Assembly (NCBI GenBank): GCA_019163175.1
Contig: JAFLKN010000015.1
Location: forward strand, 310,001 to 374,000
DNA: 64,000 nt
Reading direction: 5' to 3'
From: Prolixibacteraceae bacterium
Lineage (GTDB): Bacteria; Bacteroidota; Bacteroidia; Bacteroidales; Prolixibacteraceae
Each line of letters opens with the position of its first letter. Positions within the stretch are counted from its first letter, which is position 1. The notes beneath the pieces were generated by a model. That model was not told the origin of the DNA and did not search any database. It saw only the letters and a list, made by a program, of their open reading frames with translations. Of this stretch, positions 50,761 through 54,071 are shown in pieces. Position numbers and translations under genes: made by a program.

Positions 50761-50786
50761 AACTCTTCAACAAACATATAACAAGC

Positions 50787-50818
50787 AAAAAAGCAGAAAT
50801 AAAAATTTCTGCTTTTTT
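50787..50818. terminator. Bidirectional terminator between DUF4249 and the tRNA-Val/GIY-YIG unit
   Basis: Stem AAAAAAGCAGAAAT / ATTTCTGCTTTTTT with a 4-base A-rich loop. T-runs result on both strands, so it can end the DUF4249 transcript and the minus-strand tRNA/nuclease transcript. Confidence 0.82.
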
Positions 50819-50820
50819 GT

Positions 50821-50877
50821 GGGCTGTACTGGATTCGAACCATCCGCCATCTGGCGGACTACCCTGTCAAGGCAATG
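50821..50877 (-). pseudogene. Partial tRNA-Val remnant (3' part) with palindrome insertion
   Basis: On the minus strand this begins with CATTGCCTTGACAGGGTAG, the anticodon arm of tRNA-Val(GAC) with one change (TTACC to TTGCC), then a palindrome TCCGCCAGATGGCGGA (50843-50858), then TGGTTCGAATCCAGTACAGCCC, the T arm and acceptor end. The 5' half of the tRNA is missing. The palindrome replaces eight bases of the variable loop/T stem of the intact gene. The upstream part codes for the last residues and stop codon of the GIY-YIG protein. Confidence 0.8.
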
Positions 50878-51136
50878 TCTGTGCATTTAATTTGTTTTTC
50901 ACTAATTCCCAAACAAACATTCTGCCTCTTGCAGTTTTTAGGGAATTTTCGCGTTTAATGGCCTCTGTTCTGGAAGTGAATTCTTCAAAATAGATCATTT
51001 CCCATGGTTGAAAATGACTTGTCCAACCTGTATTTTCGATGCCATTATGTGTTTCTAACCGTTGATTGAGATCACAGGTTTGTCCAACGTAGATTTTGTT
51101 GAAAGTTGAGGAATATAAAACGTATGTGAAATACAT
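50867..51136 (-). CDS. GIY-YIG nuclease family protein
   Basis: An 89-residue UvrC-N/URI-type nuclease domain: YVLYSS...KIYVGQT (the GIY and YIG strands), the Arg in LNQRLETHN, and the catalytic Glu in SRTEAIKRENSLK. These single-domain proteins cut DNA; their cellular roles in Bacteroidota are unclear. The ATG is 17 bp after the 3' end of an intact tRNA-Val on the same strand, and the last codons (TLP and TGA) lie in the anticodon arm of a partial tRNA-Val copy. This places the gene exactly between two copies of the tRNA 3' region. Confidence 0.88.
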   Translation of the reverse strand: MYFTYVLYSSTFNKIYVGQTCDLNQRLETHNGIENTGWTSHFQPWEMIYFEEFTSRTEAIKRENSLKTARGRMFVWELVKNKLNAQTLP

Positions 51137-51153
51137 TTTGTAGTTAAAGAAGT

Positions 51154-51227
51154 GGGCTGTACTGGATTCGAACCAGTGACCCCTACCCTGTCAAGGTAAT
51201 GCTCTAAACCAACTGAGCTAACAGCCC
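51154..51227 (-). tRNA. tRNA-Val (anticodon GAC)
   Basis: A 74-nt cloverleaf on the minus strand: acceptor GGGCTGT / ACAGCCC, D arm GCTC...GAGC, anticodon stem TTACC / GGTAG around TTGACAG (anticodon GAC), and T arm ACTGG-TTCGAAT-CCAGT. No CCA is encoded, as usual in the phylum. All stems pair except a G-T at the top of the anticodon stem. It is followed after 17 bp by the GIY-YIG gene and preceded 52 bp upstream by a broken copy. Confidence 0.95.
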
Positions 51228-51279
51228 TTCTTATGTAACCAATAAACAGTGAACTTAATTAACTATTTTCGCGAATTGT

Positions 51280-51341
51280 GGGCTGTACTGGATTCGAACC
51301 ATCCGCCAGATGGCGGACTAAACCAACTGAGCTAACAGTCC
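51280..51341 (-). pseudogene. Broken tRNA-Val copy with anticodon arm replaced by a palindrome
   Basis: Minus strand: GGACTGTTAGCTCAGTTGG and TTTAG match the acceptor 5' strand and D arm of the intact tRNA-Val, then TCCGCCATCTGGCGGA (palindrome, 51302-51317), then TGGTTCGAATCCAGTACAGCCC. The whole anticodon arm, variable loop and half of the T stem are gone. The acceptor stem has an A-C mismatch at position 3. It cannot work as a tRNA. The palindrome core differs (TC here, GA in the copy at 50843), i.e. opposite orientation. Confidence 0.85.
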
Positions 51342-51512
51342 TTGTTCGAGCCACAAAAATATAAATTTTTTGGATTCTTTTTAGTTTGACGAATAAATCG
51401 TCAAAATTTGAGAATTAAGAATCAGAACGCTATTTTTGAATTCGGTTTGACTGGGTTAATATCTGGTTAATTTGCTTATAATTGTGACTCTTGAGTATTT
51501 AAAATATTTCAG

Positions 51513-54071
51513 ATGAAGATCGTCCTTCGCTACATTGTTATATTAATCTTCGGGTTTGTCCCGGTTTTGGCGGCAAATGCCAAAACTGCCGAAGACATCC
51601 TGATGAAACAATACGATGAAACGATTTTTGTCATCTCCAATTTCTCCGGTGTTGACGCTAATCTGAACGAAACCCGCTCTATTCAGGAACTTCTGAATGA
51701 AAACATTGGCGGTTTCAGGTTTTATCTGGAATGGGAAAAACAACAGAATCAACTCATGATTAAACGAGCGGACGGACATTCCATTTCGTTCAGCCAAACC
51801 ATACAAGAAATAAAAAACTACCTGGAAAATAAGCCTGATAAGGTATTTACCCTCTTCCTCGATTTCGGTACTAACGTAAATGAATTAACCGATGTCCTTC
51901 AGGAAACCGGAATCAGCCAGAATTTATATACATACGATTTTGAAGAAGGTTGGCCATCGATAAAAAAAATGATTGAAGAAGACCGGAGGTTGGTCATCTT
52001 CTCCATGCAAGAGCACCGAAATAGTCCGGAATGGTTGCACTACATCTGGAATCATGCGGTTGAGCCTTATTTTTCCATCTGGGAAGCGCCCGTATTTAAA
52101 GGCGAATTTCTGAAAGGCGATCCTAAAAACAGCCTGCTCATATACAACGATTATAATTTTCCACGAAGGTCAGAAGCCGCAAAGAACCTGAAATACGACA
52201 CCAATCAGAATCCCTACCTCATCGAGCACATCAAAAATACCTGGACAAATGCGGGCAAAACGCCTAATTTCATTTTTCTTGATCGGTACGAAAACTGGAT
52301 TTTGGGCATTCTCTCCTACGTTCGCGGATTTAGAACCATAAAGGGAACTGTAACCTACAACACGGAGGTTCTCGACTATGTAAACTGGGGAAAGACTGAA
52401 AGTCTCACAAGCGGAAAATTCTGTTTCCCGGTGGGCCCCGGCGACAATCTCGTCCTGACACCCCACAGTCCGGGGTTCCGGTTTACACCGGAGTCGAGCA
52501 CGTTCAACGAGCCAAAACAAAATATCATTCAGCACTTTATTGCCACACCACTTGAAATAACCGATAATCTGGAAGGTCATTACACTTTTGCAAAAGAAAG
52601 CCGTGATTACAGCATAAACGGCTTTAACGGGAAACCAGAGAACATTCGGTTCACCAACGATTCCACCCGATCTACCGTAGCTACATTTGGCCCTAACAGT
52701 TATATCATATTGCCTGGTGCTGAAGAATTTAAGATTCGAGACCATGATTTTTCTGTTGCAGCATGGATAAAAATCAAGGAATATTTGCCCAACAAACGGG
52801 ACTATTGCATCATCGGAACCAAGAACAATTCATACCAGCAAGGTATTCACCTCTTAATCAGAGATAAAAAACCATATTTCGGCTTTTATAACAACGACTT
52901 ACAGGGAAAAACCTTACTCGAACCCGGAGTTTGGTACCACCTGGTATGGAGGTACAATAAACTGAGTGGTGAACAAGCCATATTTCTGAACGGGAAACTC
53001 GACAGCCGATCGTTGGGTCATCCGGCCTATAAAGGAAGGGAAAACCTCTACATTGGCGTTGCCGGATTTAATTGGTCATCAAACATGAATGGAGCTATCG
53101 ACAACCTCAGCATCTGGTCAAGGGCCTTGGGTGAAGAAGAAATCTGGAAATTAAATAAAGAGCTTATCGAAATAGTCCCCATTAAAAACATCTTCATACT
53201 TTACCCTATTTTATCCAGATCCGGCCTTGTTATTTTACTTCTGGCTTTGGCCACTTTTGGATTCTTCAAGATCAAAAAAAGGATTAAGAAGCAGCCATCA
53301 GCTGCAGAAAAAATCAGGAGTATTGAGCAAATTGTCATCAAAAAGCCAGAGTCAAATTACATCCAGTTGTTTGGTGATTTTAAGGTACTTAATACGGAGG
53401 GAAACGAAATTACCAGTCTTTTTACACCGAAGTTAAAGCAGCTTTTTCTGATTATTCTTTTGTATTCAAGGCGAAATAAGAATGGTATTTCGACCAAAGA
53501 ATTAACCGATATCCTCTGGCAAGGTCATTCCTCGCAAAGTGCTAAAAATAGCCGGGGAGTAACCATCCGAAAGCTACGTCTGATTCTTGAATCGCTCGAT
53601 TCTGTCCAGATAAACTTTCATATCGACAGGTGGTCGATGGCATTTGGCGGTTCGGTTTACTGCGATTACGTAGAATGCTTAAAACTCCTGAAGCGGGAGA
53701 AAATTCACGATACCGATTTTAACCTGAATTTTTATCACATTATTCAGGAAGGCGAAATTTTTAAAGGTGAATCATACGACTGGCTCGACGATTTCAAAGG
53801 ATTTGTTGGAAATAATATCGTTGATATTCTGCTGAAATTTATCAGCGAACTGACGATTGAGCGTGACAATGAACTAATCCTGAAACTGACTGATCGAATT
53901 CTTGAAACCGATCCGGTTAGTGATCAGGCCATTGCGTTTAAACTGAAAGCATTGGTGAAACAGAACAATTACAATCTGGCCCGATTTACATTCGACAGGT
54001 TCTGCGCCCTTTATGAAGATATGTACGGCGAAAAGTTTAAAGGAAAATTTGAAGAATTATTGGCATCCTGA
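51513..54071 (+). CDS. Membrane one-component regulator: PI-PLC-like, LamG, TM, SARP-type wHTH and BTAD-like domain
   Basis: 852 residues. Signal peptide 1-23. Residues ~25-330 resemble a PI-PLC X-type TIM barrel (RSIQELLNENIGGFRFYLEW, then FTLFLDFG), but the two catalytic histidines of that family are not found at their usual places (SNFSG; KRADGH). Residues ~350-545 are a LamG/concanavalin fold (HDFSVAAWIKI, WYHLVWRYNKLSGEQAIFLNG, GAIDNLSIWSRAL). One membrane helix (~567-588) and a basic stretch follow. Residues ~615-710 are a winged helix of the SARP/Trans_reg_C type (YIQLFGDFKVLNTEGNEI, ISTKELTDILWQG, RGVTIRKLRLILE), then a BTAD-like helical domain to the end. It likely senses an envelope ligand and binds DNA directly. 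Target genes unknown; the cytochrome/oxidoreductase run starts 254 bp downstream. Confidence 0.82.
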   Translation: MKIVLRYIVILIFGFVPVLAANAKTAEDILMKQYDETIFVISNFSGVDANLNETRSIQELLNENIGGFRFYLEWEKQQNQLMIKRADGHSISFSQTIQEIKNYLENKPDKVFTLFLDFGTNVNELTDVLQETGISQNLYTYDFEEGWPSIKKMIEEDRRLVIFSMQEHRNSPEWLHYIWNHAVEPYFSIWEAPVFKGEFLKGDPKNSLLIYNDYNFPRRSEAAKNLKYDTNQNPYLIEHIKNTWTNAGKTPNFIFLDRYENWILGILSYVRGFRTIKGTVTYNTEVLDYVNWGKTESLTSGKFCFPVGPGDNLVLTPHSPGFRFTPESSTFNEPKQNIIQHFIATPLEITDNLEGHYTFAKESRDYSINGFNGKPENIRFTNDSTRSTVATFGPNSYIILPGAEEFKIRDHDFSVAAWIKIKEYLPNKRDYCIIGTKNNSYQQGIHLLIRDKKPYFGFYNNDLQGKTLLEPGVWYHLVWRYNKLSGEQAIFLNGKLDSRSLGHPAYKGRENLYIGVAGFNWSSNMNGAIDNLSIWSRALGEEEIWKLNKELIEIVPIKNIFILYPILSRSGLVILLLALATFGFFKIKKRIKKQPSAAEKIRSIEQIVIKKPESNYIQLFGDFKVLNTEGNEITSLFTPKLKQLFLIILLYSRRNKNGISTKELTDILWQGHSSQSAKNSRGVTIRKLRLILESLDSVQINFHIDRWSMAFGGSVYCDYVECLKLLKREKIHDTDFNLNFYHIIQEGEIFKGESYDWLDDFKGFVGNNIVDILLKFISELTIERDNELILKLTDRILETDPVSDQAIAFKLKALVKQNNYNLARFTFDRFCALYEDMYGEKFKGKFEELLAS

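What the first reader, a model, noticed from the sequence alone, without database searches (positions are those of the whole stretch)
50821..51341. GIY-YIG nuclease gene sits between an intact tRNA-Val and duplicate 3' tRNA sequence, like a minimal tRNA-targeted mobile unit
On the minus strand the order is: broken tRNA-Val (51341-51280), intact tRNA-Val(GAC) (51227-51154), 17 bp, GIY-YIG gene (51136-50867), partial tRNA-Val 3' portion (50877-50821), terminator. The anticodon arm to 3' end of the tRNA thus occurs on both sides of the nuclease gene, as the att repeats of tRNA-integrating elements do, but the insert is only ~330 bp with a single gene. GIY-YIG domains are known in homing endonucleases; a homing-like or tRNA-cutting function with repair by the duplicated tRNA end is an inference.
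Basis: partly seen in the sequence, partly recalled or inferred. Interest (0 to 1): 0.85.

Follow-up and report, generated by a model that had tools for sequence, protein, structure and literature searches.

The report
tRNA-bound GIY-YIG nuclease unit
A tiny one-gene DNA unit, carrying a nuclease gene and hairpin-damaged copies of the tRNA gene it sits on, occupies the only such tRNA gene found in this bacterium; related nucleases sit on other tRNA genes in related bacteria, each lineage keeping mostly to one kind of tRNA.

Summary
On the minus strand: promoter, defective tRNA-Val copy A, intact tRNA-Val(GAC) B, 89-codon GIY-YIG gene, defective copy C, terminator. In A and C a 16-nt hairpin, TCCGCC(N4)GGCGGA, replaces part of the tRNA. 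B is the only complete tRNA-Val(GAC) found in the assembly. In many relatives the same locus holds one tRNA alone; native promoter precedes A and native terminator follows C, so 523 bp stand where 76 stood. Among 137 GIY-YIG ORFs from related Bacteroidota, 45 have a same-strand tRNA within 150 bp (0.15 expected; 0 antisense), 36 of 45 with a copy of that tRNA across the gene. Hairpins sit at recurrent tRNA positions. Nuclease lineages largely keep to one isotype (15 changes; shuffles 29 or more). Best reading: a compact GIY-YIG element working like phage SegB (free-standing, tRNA-associated, causing tandem amplification), on single tRNA genes of bacterial chromosomes; the hairpin-for-arm swap was not found in ten literature searches. 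Shown: recurrence, empty sites, isotype fidelity, tandem and dispersed copies. Not shown: cleavage, movement, the hairpin's role. Gene-less hairpin copies and the unchanged target B count against simple homing.

The parts
51344..51440 (-). native tRNA promoter region, ancestral to the insertion
   Evidence: blastn-short to orthologous loci: 81-86% over 83-96 nt in eight loci without the gene or with its remnant (L157, L158, L151, L145, L163, L148, L162, L149), shorter matches in others; TATATTTTTG fits the Bacteroidetes -7 element as recalled, not tested
51278..51341 (-). copy A: defective tRNA-Val, nt 1-24 + hairpin + 53-76
51302..51317 (-). hairpin TCCGCCATCTGGCGGA in copy A
51228..51277 (-). 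spacer A-B; no match in 20 orthologous stretches
   Evidence: query insertAB without a hit
51152..51227 (-). copy B: intact tRNA-Val(GAC), identical to the tRNA of several empty sites; only full copy found in the assembly
51137..51151 (-). 15-nt leader between tRNA and ORF; its start (TTCTT) is shared by G009, G006 and G020
   Evidence: read by eye
50867..51136 (-). GIY-YIG nuclease ORF, 89 aa; Y5, Y16, G18, R26, H30, E63 kept; dN/dS 0.21 against L011
50819..50877 (-). copy C: tRNA-Val about nt 27-45 + hairpin + 53-76; overlaps the 3' end of the ORF
50843..50858 (-). hairpin TCCGCCAGATGGCGGA in copy C (reverse complement of that in A)
50784..50818 (-). native tRNA terminator, now behind copy C
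   Evidence: 30 nt at 97% to the terminator directly behind the single tRNA of G022, whose contig ends just after it

Best explanation
A compact selfish element whose only gene is a free-standing single-domain GIY-YIG endonuclease dedicated to one tRNA gene, working like phage SegB. Proposed steps: (1) the gene is expressed from the tRNA's own promoter (inferred from gene order); (2) the nuclease breaks or nicks tRNA-containing or hairpin DNA (inferred from the domain and from the nearest solved relative by sequence, SLX1); (3) recombination between tRNA copies inserts, amplifies or moves the unit, leaving extra tRNA copies on either side (tandem and dispersed copies are seen; the process is inferred); (4) selection keeps one intact tRNA while spare copies have an arm or loop replaced by a hairpin, mostly of the TCC...GGA type, which breaks up the homology and makes a dead tRNA (pattern seen; role inferred). 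Recurrence at tRNAs, empty sites and isotype fidelity are shown; nuclease-driven movement is not.
For: 45 of 137 GIY-YIG ORFs have a same-strand tRNA within 150 bp, 0 antisense; 36 of 45 have a copy of that tRNA across the gene, 23 of 45 with a TCC..GGA hairpin in it; expectation 0.15. 117 of 274 flanks match a library of 54 tRNAs taken from these loci, 0 of 274 shuffled. Hairpin junctions recur: Val-GAC 24/34 and 45/52, Val-TAC 28/45, Met 27/44, Asp 12/19 and 56/65, Asn 28/35 and 57/62, Arg 21/21; in Val-TAC the replaced 17 nt are the anticodon arm. Hairpin density 1.49/kb in these flanks (57 in 38.2 kb) against 0.13/kb distally, 0.23/kb around empty tRNA-Val sites and 0.05/kb shuffled. Nuclease tree: 49 loci with 13 isotypes need 15 changes, 300 shuffles 29 or more; one per genus and isotype, 34 rows, 15 against 19 or more. 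Empty orthologous sites with the same promoter, one with the same terminator; the occupied rows lie among empty ones with the five outgroup rows empty. Tandem arrays: seven units 395-435 bp apart in L091, three 354 bp apart in L084. Dispersed copies in one contig: 463 bp at 94%, no blastn match outside. dN/dS 0.21. SegB precedent: PMC13096335 (passages and one section).
Against: Intact B is identical to the tRNA of several empty sites, so an occupied genome still holds any target inside the tRNA. Spare copies match the local tRNA best (26 of 34, 7 ties, 1 worse), so no donor tRNA was carried in: local duplication fits as well. Hairpin-type copies without the gene exist (3 of 31 gene-less Val loci; Met in L233 and L235), and G020 has a gene remnant without copies. 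Vertical inheritance with losses could give the presence/absence pattern inside the genus and part of the isotype fidelity. A 45-row GIY-YIG clade with 0 tRNA links also has hairpin-rich flanks (1.00/kb), so hairpins are not a tRNA matter alone. 22 of 88 rows of the other part of the tree have no tRNA label, 12 of them a clade with other targets. No sequence link to SegB was found: tblastn of 50,697 phage records gave 19 distant hits, none over 80% of the query.
Confidence: 0.5

Rival explanations
1. Classical homing endonuclease gene: the nuclease cuts the empty tRNA gene at one point, the unit is copied in by break repair, and it brings the lost 3' half of the gene with it, as fungal mitochondrial mORFs do.
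For: Copy C is a 5'-truncated tRNA joined to the gene end and followed by the native terminator, the geometry of mORF insertions with duplicated gene ends (PMC3630166, passages). Isotype-faithful lineages.
Against: The intact tRNA B is identical to that of empty sites, so a target inside the tRNA is not abolished. The duplicated ends are local, not foreign. Copy A and the hairpins are not explained.
Confidence: 0.17
2. Hairpin-centred element: the nuclease acts on TCC..GGA hairpins (cruciforms), and the hairpins, not the tRNA, are the mobile ends, as REP hairpins are for RAYT transposases; tRNA genes are favoured because they are themselves stem-loop DNA.
For: Hairpin enrichment around both the tRNA-linked ORFs and the repeat clade that has 0 tRNA links (1.49 and 1.00 per kb against 0.13). 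Hairpins sit in or replace arms and loops. Gene-less hairpin copies. Best PDB sequence match is the structure-specific nuclease SLX1, E 0.003.
Against: In the own genome the 41 other tRNAs fetched have no copies. Isotype fidelity suggests recognition of the tRNA sequence. The clade with inverted-repeat ends lacks hairpin enrichment (1 in 8.7 kb).
Confidence: 0.18
3. Bystander: tRNA genes duplicate in tandem, hairpin sequences of another origin invade the spare copies, and the GIY-YIG gene is merely carried along or settles downstream of a strong promoter.
For: Gene-less hairpin copies exist. Tandem tRNA-like matches exist elsewhere, e.g. ten about 99 bp apart in G033 (not checked for a GIY-YIG gene).
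Against: Among 35 tRNA-Val(GAC) loci copies occur in 3 of 4 with the gene or its remnant and in 3 of 31 without (Fisher p 0.011). 0 of 34 other tRNA regions in the own genome have copies. Isotype fidelity of the nuclease tree.
Confidence: 0.1
4. RNA-level role: the nuclease or its transcript acts with tRNA-like RNAs (tRNA cleavage with decoys, or tRNA-like processing signals that free the mRNA).
For: One promoter and one terminator bracket tRNA, gene and tRNA-like copies, all on one strand. Copy A folds better than shuffles (z -2.43, 3 of 200 as good).
Against: Copy C does not (z -0.74, 44 of 200). Copies differ widely in which part is kept. Sister clades sit in protein genes or dispersed repeats without tRNA. 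GIY-YIG enzymes known to me cut DNA (recalled).
Confidence: 0.05

Closest known systems
Phage SegB (free-standing GIY-YIG homing endonuclease of T-even phages)
   Same: Free-standing GIY-YIG nuclease beside tRNA genes; SegB is reported to cleave tRNA-containing sequence and to cause tandem amplification of tRNA plus its own gene by recombination; SegB homologues in phages are enriched near tRNAs (PMC13096335: abstract and other passages, section 10).
   Different: Here on bacterial chromosomes; a single domain of about 80-100 aa; lineages largely faithful to one isotype, whereas the paper saw no isotype preference in phages; spare tRNA copies carry hairpins; no close sequence link to phage proteins.
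Fungal mitochondrial mobile endonuclease ORFs (mORFs: Allomyces atp6, Glomus atp6/atp9/cox2/nad3)
   Same: An endonuclease ORF (GIY-YIG in Glomus atp9) lies between a working gene and a duplicated, displaced gene end (PMC3630166, passages).
   Different: There the supplied end is foreign and the native end matches the relative; here the copies match the local tRNA. Protein genes there, tRNA genes and hairpins here.
RAYT transposase with REP/REPIN hairpins (recalled)
   Same: A single nuclease-type gene surrounded by short palindromes, some occurring without the gene.
   Different: A GIY-YIG enzyme instead of a Y1/HUH enzyme; palindromes lie inside tRNA copies; dispersal in trans not shown.
Integrative elements and phages in tRNA 3' ends (recalled)
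   Same: A tRNA piece occurs on both sides of the insert and one intact tRNA remains.
   Different: No recombinase-sized ORF; about 450 bp; copies bear hairpins, are several, and in some lineages lie 5' of the gene with the intact tRNA behind it.

Membership tests
GIY-YIG nuclease superfamily | GIY-YIG domain with catalytic residues | tested here: met
   PF01541 61 bits, cut-off 22.6; Y16, G18, R26, H30, E63 invariant in 43 sequences, Y5 in at least 90%. Which residues are catalytic is recalled.
homing endonuclease element | empty allele at the orthologous site in relatives | tested here: met
   Single tRNA without gene or copies in many relatives; native promoter and terminator flank A and C
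homing endonuclease element | insertion destroys the recognition site, protecting the occupied allele | tested here: inconclusive
   Intact B is identical to the tRNA of several empty sites: a site wholly inside the tRNA is not destroyed. The true site is unknown.
homing endonuclease element | enzyme cuts the empty allele and the gene is copied in | not testable with these tools
   needs enzyme and a homing assay
SegB-type tRNA-associated amplifier | free-standing GIY-YIG gene enriched beside tRNA genes | tested here: met
   45 of 137 against 0.15 expected
SegB-type tRNA-associated amplifier | nuclease-driven tandem amplification of tRNA and nuclease gene | tested here: inconclusive
   Arrays of gene plus tRNA copy are seen: L091 (7 units), L084 (3), pairs in L045, L060, L108, L112; that the nuclease causes them is not tested
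SegB-type tRNA-associated amplifier | sequence descent from phage SegB | tested here: inconclusive
   19 of 50,697 phage records match at E up to 0.01, none over 80% of the query; 15 of the 19 were listed, none a T-even phage; group I intron endonuclease model TIGR01453 at 19.1 bits, under its 56.05 cut-off
integrase-type tRNA island | encodes a tyrosine or serine recombinase | tested here: not met
   Inside the 523 bp the only ORFs of 50 codons or more are the GIY-YIG gene and a 58-codon frame on the other strand
RAYT-REP system | Y1/HUH transposase gene with the hairpins | tested here: not met
   Same ORF list; a transposase acting from elsewhere in the genome was not searched

The most novel reading that the evidence does not exclude
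A previously undescribed class of bacterial mobile element: a single GIY-YIG gene of under 300 bp, each lineage addressed to one tRNA isotype, that copies itself together with tRNA sequence and swaps arms of the spare tRNA copies for a TCC...GGA hairpin that it recognises, with sister lineages addressed to conserved spots in protein genes through inverted-repeat ends; among the smallest self-addressed elements in bacteria.
Probability: 0.3. Interest if true: 0.93.

Novelty: new variant of a known kind. Interest (0 to 1): 0.77.

Why it matters
If true, single tRNA genes in a major bacterial phylum are recurrent homes of a selfish nuclease, and each nuclease lineage knows which tRNA gene it belongs to. 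It would extend the phage SegB-tRNA story to chromosomes, give a set of small natural nucleases with matched targets and empty alleles for testing how GIY-YIG specificity changes, and offer a hairpin-for-arm swap in tRNA genes that no model I know explains. It would also account for tRNA fragments and short GIY-YIG genes beside tRNAs in the Bacteroidota genomes examined.

Tried and rejected
Rejected: chance (0.15 expected against 45 seen; 0 of 274 shuffled flanks with tRNA matches); assembly artefact (the same layout in many genomes, among them public records of different isolates); phage or integrase island (no recombinase-sized ORF; one match of 16 residues among 2.9 million viral contigs). 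Looked for a known RNA family besides the tRNA in the window: none at gathering score. Literature: ten searches (one search listed 30 of 37 and 15 of 24 papers) in an open-access library gave no listed title or abstract start that describes chromosomal GIY-YIG units at bacterial tRNA genes or hairpin-bearing tRNA copies. Two papers were opened: PMC3630166 in passages, PMC13096335 in passages and one section; the rest were seen in listings only. Subscription papers and preprints were not covered.

Weak points kept in: the 66 hairpins include repeats within arrays and at least one false one (L020 upstream is the anticodon arm of the tRNA-Asp itself as called in a second frame or of its neighbour). 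The isotype labels Asn-att and Phe-aaa are degenerate calls and were dropped before counting changes; labels come from ARAGORN or from blastn-short of the flanks, and L013, L014 and L016 were labelled Met by hand (for L014 by eye only). 133 of 137 ORFs were usable for the tree, which has 78 columns and 56 of 123 inner branches with support under 80. The shuffles keep base content only, not dinucleotides. 13 of the 137 ORFs were chosen for likeness to the window protein (7 of these 13 are tRNA-adjacent); the other 124 come from the best-scoring, listed part of the Pfam table and second copies in the same stretches (38 of 124 are tRNA-adjacent, the window's own included). Four identical duplicates were dropped before counting (L028, L148, L154, L160). 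UvrC-like long frames were mostly not fetched; L009 was, and my profile did not take it up. A note of mine says 8 of 14 relatives have an upstream tRNA; the right count is 7 of 14. 35 tRNA-Val(GAC) loci were compared, not all that one search lists; G022 and G002 were left out there because their contigs end beside the tRNA.

Full report
What is there. Read on the minus strand, the locus is promoter, copy A (51341-51278), intact tRNA-Val(GAC) B (51227-51152), a 15-nt leader, an 89-codon GIY-YIG ORF (51136-50867), copy C (about 50877-50819) and a terminator. In both A and C part of the tRNA is replaced by a 16-nt palindrome, TCCGCCATCTGGCGGA in A and its reverse complement in C. A keeps tRNA nucleotides 1-24 and 53-76; C keeps about 27-45 and 53-76. 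B is the only full-length match to this tRNA in the 5.92-Mb assembly; of the 4 other matches 3 are pieces of A and C and 1 is partial at a contig end. Of the other tRNA regions, 34 (41 tRNAs) were fetched and 0 of 34 have a tRNA copy nearby.

Empty site. The 852-aa gene next door (51513-54071) marks the same locus in related genomes. There the tRNA-Val(GAC) stands alone, without GIY-YIG ORF or tRNA copy, in G008, G013, G003, G018, G012, G017, G005 and G014 of the same genus and in G024, G044, G056 and G042 outside it, mostly followed at once by a terminator-like inverted repeat (by eye). In G022 the single tRNA runs straight into a terminator, after which the contig ends. Two genomes (G019, G021) have another sequence behind the tRNA. 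The gene, whole or broken, is present in G000, G009 (L011 appears to be the same genome), G006 (broken) and G020 (remnant straight behind the native tRNA, without copies). The promoter region before copy A aligns with the promoter of the single tRNA in the empty sites, and 30 nt of the terminator behind copy C align at 97% with the terminator behind the single tRNA of G022. So about 523 bp stand where 76 bp stood. In a tree of the 852-aa protein, the two occupied rows G000 and G020 lie among empty and other rows, and the outgroup rows G005, G024, G044, G056 and G042 are empty (20 rows; G006 and G009 gave no orthologue of that gene and could not be placed; G001, G002 and G010 were not scored). 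This favours a gain within the genus; whether once with losses or more than once is open.

It recurs. PF01541 is found in 98 of 101 related genomes. I examined 137 GIY-YIG ORFs in stretches from these and from public loci. An ARAGORN tRNA lies within 150 bp on the same strand in 45 of 137, on the opposite strand in 0 of 137; with 42 tRNAs in the own genome the expectation is 0.15. In 34 the tRNA is upstream of the ORF (15-136 bp from tRNA end to domain start, 31 of 34 at most 88), in 11 it is downstream. In 36 of 45 a copy of the same tRNA lies on the other side of the gene, and in 23 of 45 this copy holds a TCC..GGA hairpin. Against a library of 54 tRNAs from these loci, 117 of 274 flanks match and 0 of 274 shuffled ones.

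The hairpin swap. Hairpins that abut tRNA sequence were listed at 38 loci (66 entries, repeats in arrays included). The tRNA positions at which sequence leaves off and resumes recur: 24/34 and 45/52 in Val-GAC (24/52 in copy A), 28/45 in Val-TAC, 27/44 and 12/19 in Met, 12/19 and 56/65 in Asp, 28/35 and 57/62 in Asn, and insertion without loss at 21 or 22 (D loop) in Arg, where the gene lies 5' of the intact tRNA and the hairpin begins CCTGCC. In Val-TAC and Met the 17 nt lost are the anticodon arm. Stems differ between species (TCCGCC, TCCCGG, TCCCGAT, TCCGTC) but the outer TCC/GGA is kept outside the Arg group; TCC was one of the two anchors of the search, so this is partly by construction. 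TCC-hairpins occur at 1.49/kb in flanks of tRNA-linked genes, 1.00/kb around a separate GIY-YIG clade with dispersed repeats, 0.11/kb around the clade with inverted-repeat ends, 0.13/kb further out in the same stretches, 0.23/kb around empty tRNA-Val sites (3 in 13.2 kb), 0.10/kb in the rest of the window, and 0.00-0.05/kb in shuffled sequence.

Lineages and targets. The tree of 133 ORFs has a 45-row clade with 0 tRNA links and an 88-row remainder with 66 links. Among 49 loci with a tRNA label (13 isotypes) 15 changes are needed, 300 shuffles 29 or more; with one row per genus and isotype (34 rows) 15 against 19 or more. Val-TAC units occur in host families f1, f3, f25 and f34, Arg-CCT in f1 and f28. 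The spare copies match the local tRNA better than the same isotype of other hosts in 26 of 34, equally in 7, worse in 1: they are made, or kept alike, on the spot.

Movement. Tandem units: seven in L091, 395-435 bp apart, three in L084, 354 bp apart, pairs elsewhere. In one public contig two copies of a 463-bp stretch (gene plus hairpin-bearing tRNA-Met copy) at 94% and a third match of 330 bp (gene with a stop, no tRNA part) sit within 10 kb with no other blastn match in the stretches compared, and ARAGORN finds no tRNA in the 6.2-kb stretches around the first two (L013, L014). Copies without the gene exist too: 3 of 31 gene-less tRNA-Val(GAC) loci (L168, L178, L180) and tRNA-Met loci L233 and L235 (no gene seen in the part printed). 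Among 35 tRNA-Val(GAC) loci 3 of 4 with the gene or its remnant and 3 of 31 without it have copies (Fisher p 0.011).

The protein. 43 aligned relatives keep Y16, G18, R26, H30 and E63. The best solved relatives by sequence are SLX1 (E 0.003) and UPF0213 proteins. dN/dS against L011 is 0.21. It is not a phage gene as far as seen: 1 of 2.9 million viral contigs, 16 residues matched, and 19 distant phage records.

How it most likely works. Phage SegB is a free-standing GIY-YIG nuclease beside tRNA genes that is reported to cut tRNA-containing sequence and to drive tandem amplification of tRNA and its own gene by homologous recombination; its homologues are enriched near tRNAs in phages, without preference for an isotype (PMC13096335, passages and section 10). 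The same action on a chromosome would give what is seen: extra tRNA copies on either side of the gene, arrays, clean empty sites, one intact tRNA kept by selection. The open part is the hairpin. It may keep the spare copies from recombining the gene away, silence them, or be the structure the nuclease acts on. That the intact tRNA in an occupied locus is unchanged speaks against a plain homing site within the tRNA; [quoted passage not shown]

Novelty. The kind (a free-standing GIY-YIG gene that rides beside a target gene) is known; the version (chromosomal, one domain, largely faithful to one tRNA isotype, spare copies with hairpins for arms) was not found in ten literature searches of an open-access library.

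Noticed in passing
L085, L189, L192, L183, L071, L077, L103, L064, L100 (also L021, L186): A related GIY-YIG subclade (12 rows, 0 with tRNA) has inverted-repeat ends, about TTTACCC[TC]GT[GC]AAAT.. and ..ATTT[GC]AC[AG]GGGTAA, whose changes match on both sides (by eye), and lies inside protein genes: PDDEXK_3 split at profile position 25/26 (L103), 23S_rRNA_IVP (L071, L077), HEPN (L064), and by eye RAYT-like genes, three of them at MPNHFH (Pfam did not confirm these halves)..
   Followed up: partly
L006, L008 and the other rows of the 45-row clade of the tree: This GIY-YIG clade with no tRNA link has flanks rich in TCC..GGA hairpins and often direct repeats; the L008 repeat has 8 matches in the own genome, itself included, 7 of them on the same contig within about 21 kb.
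   Followed up: partly
L104: A GIY-YIG ORF lies about 100 bp behind the 3' end of a tmRNA gene (Rfam RF00023).
   Followed up: no
L003 (1501-1516) and L005 (1501-1516): The TCCGCCAGCTGGCGGA hairpin (one mismatch in L005) occurs in a second context of the own genome, a partly shared sequence around GGATGATCCGCCAGCTGGCGGATGGCGAGTTC, with no tRNA in the 3-kb stretches.
   Followed up: no
L168, L178, L180, L233, L235: Altered tRNA copies next to intact tRNA-Val or tRNA-Met without a GIY-YIG gene seen beside them; L178 has a second, imperfect hairpin in the T loop, L180 only this imperfect kind.
   Followed up: partly
L153 (G021), L155 (G019), L164 (G040): Behind the tRNA-Val(GAC) these genomes share a different start of sequence (agttacaa..gcgagtaacaaaatagtaacaaa), perhaps the end of an integrated element.
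   Followed up: no
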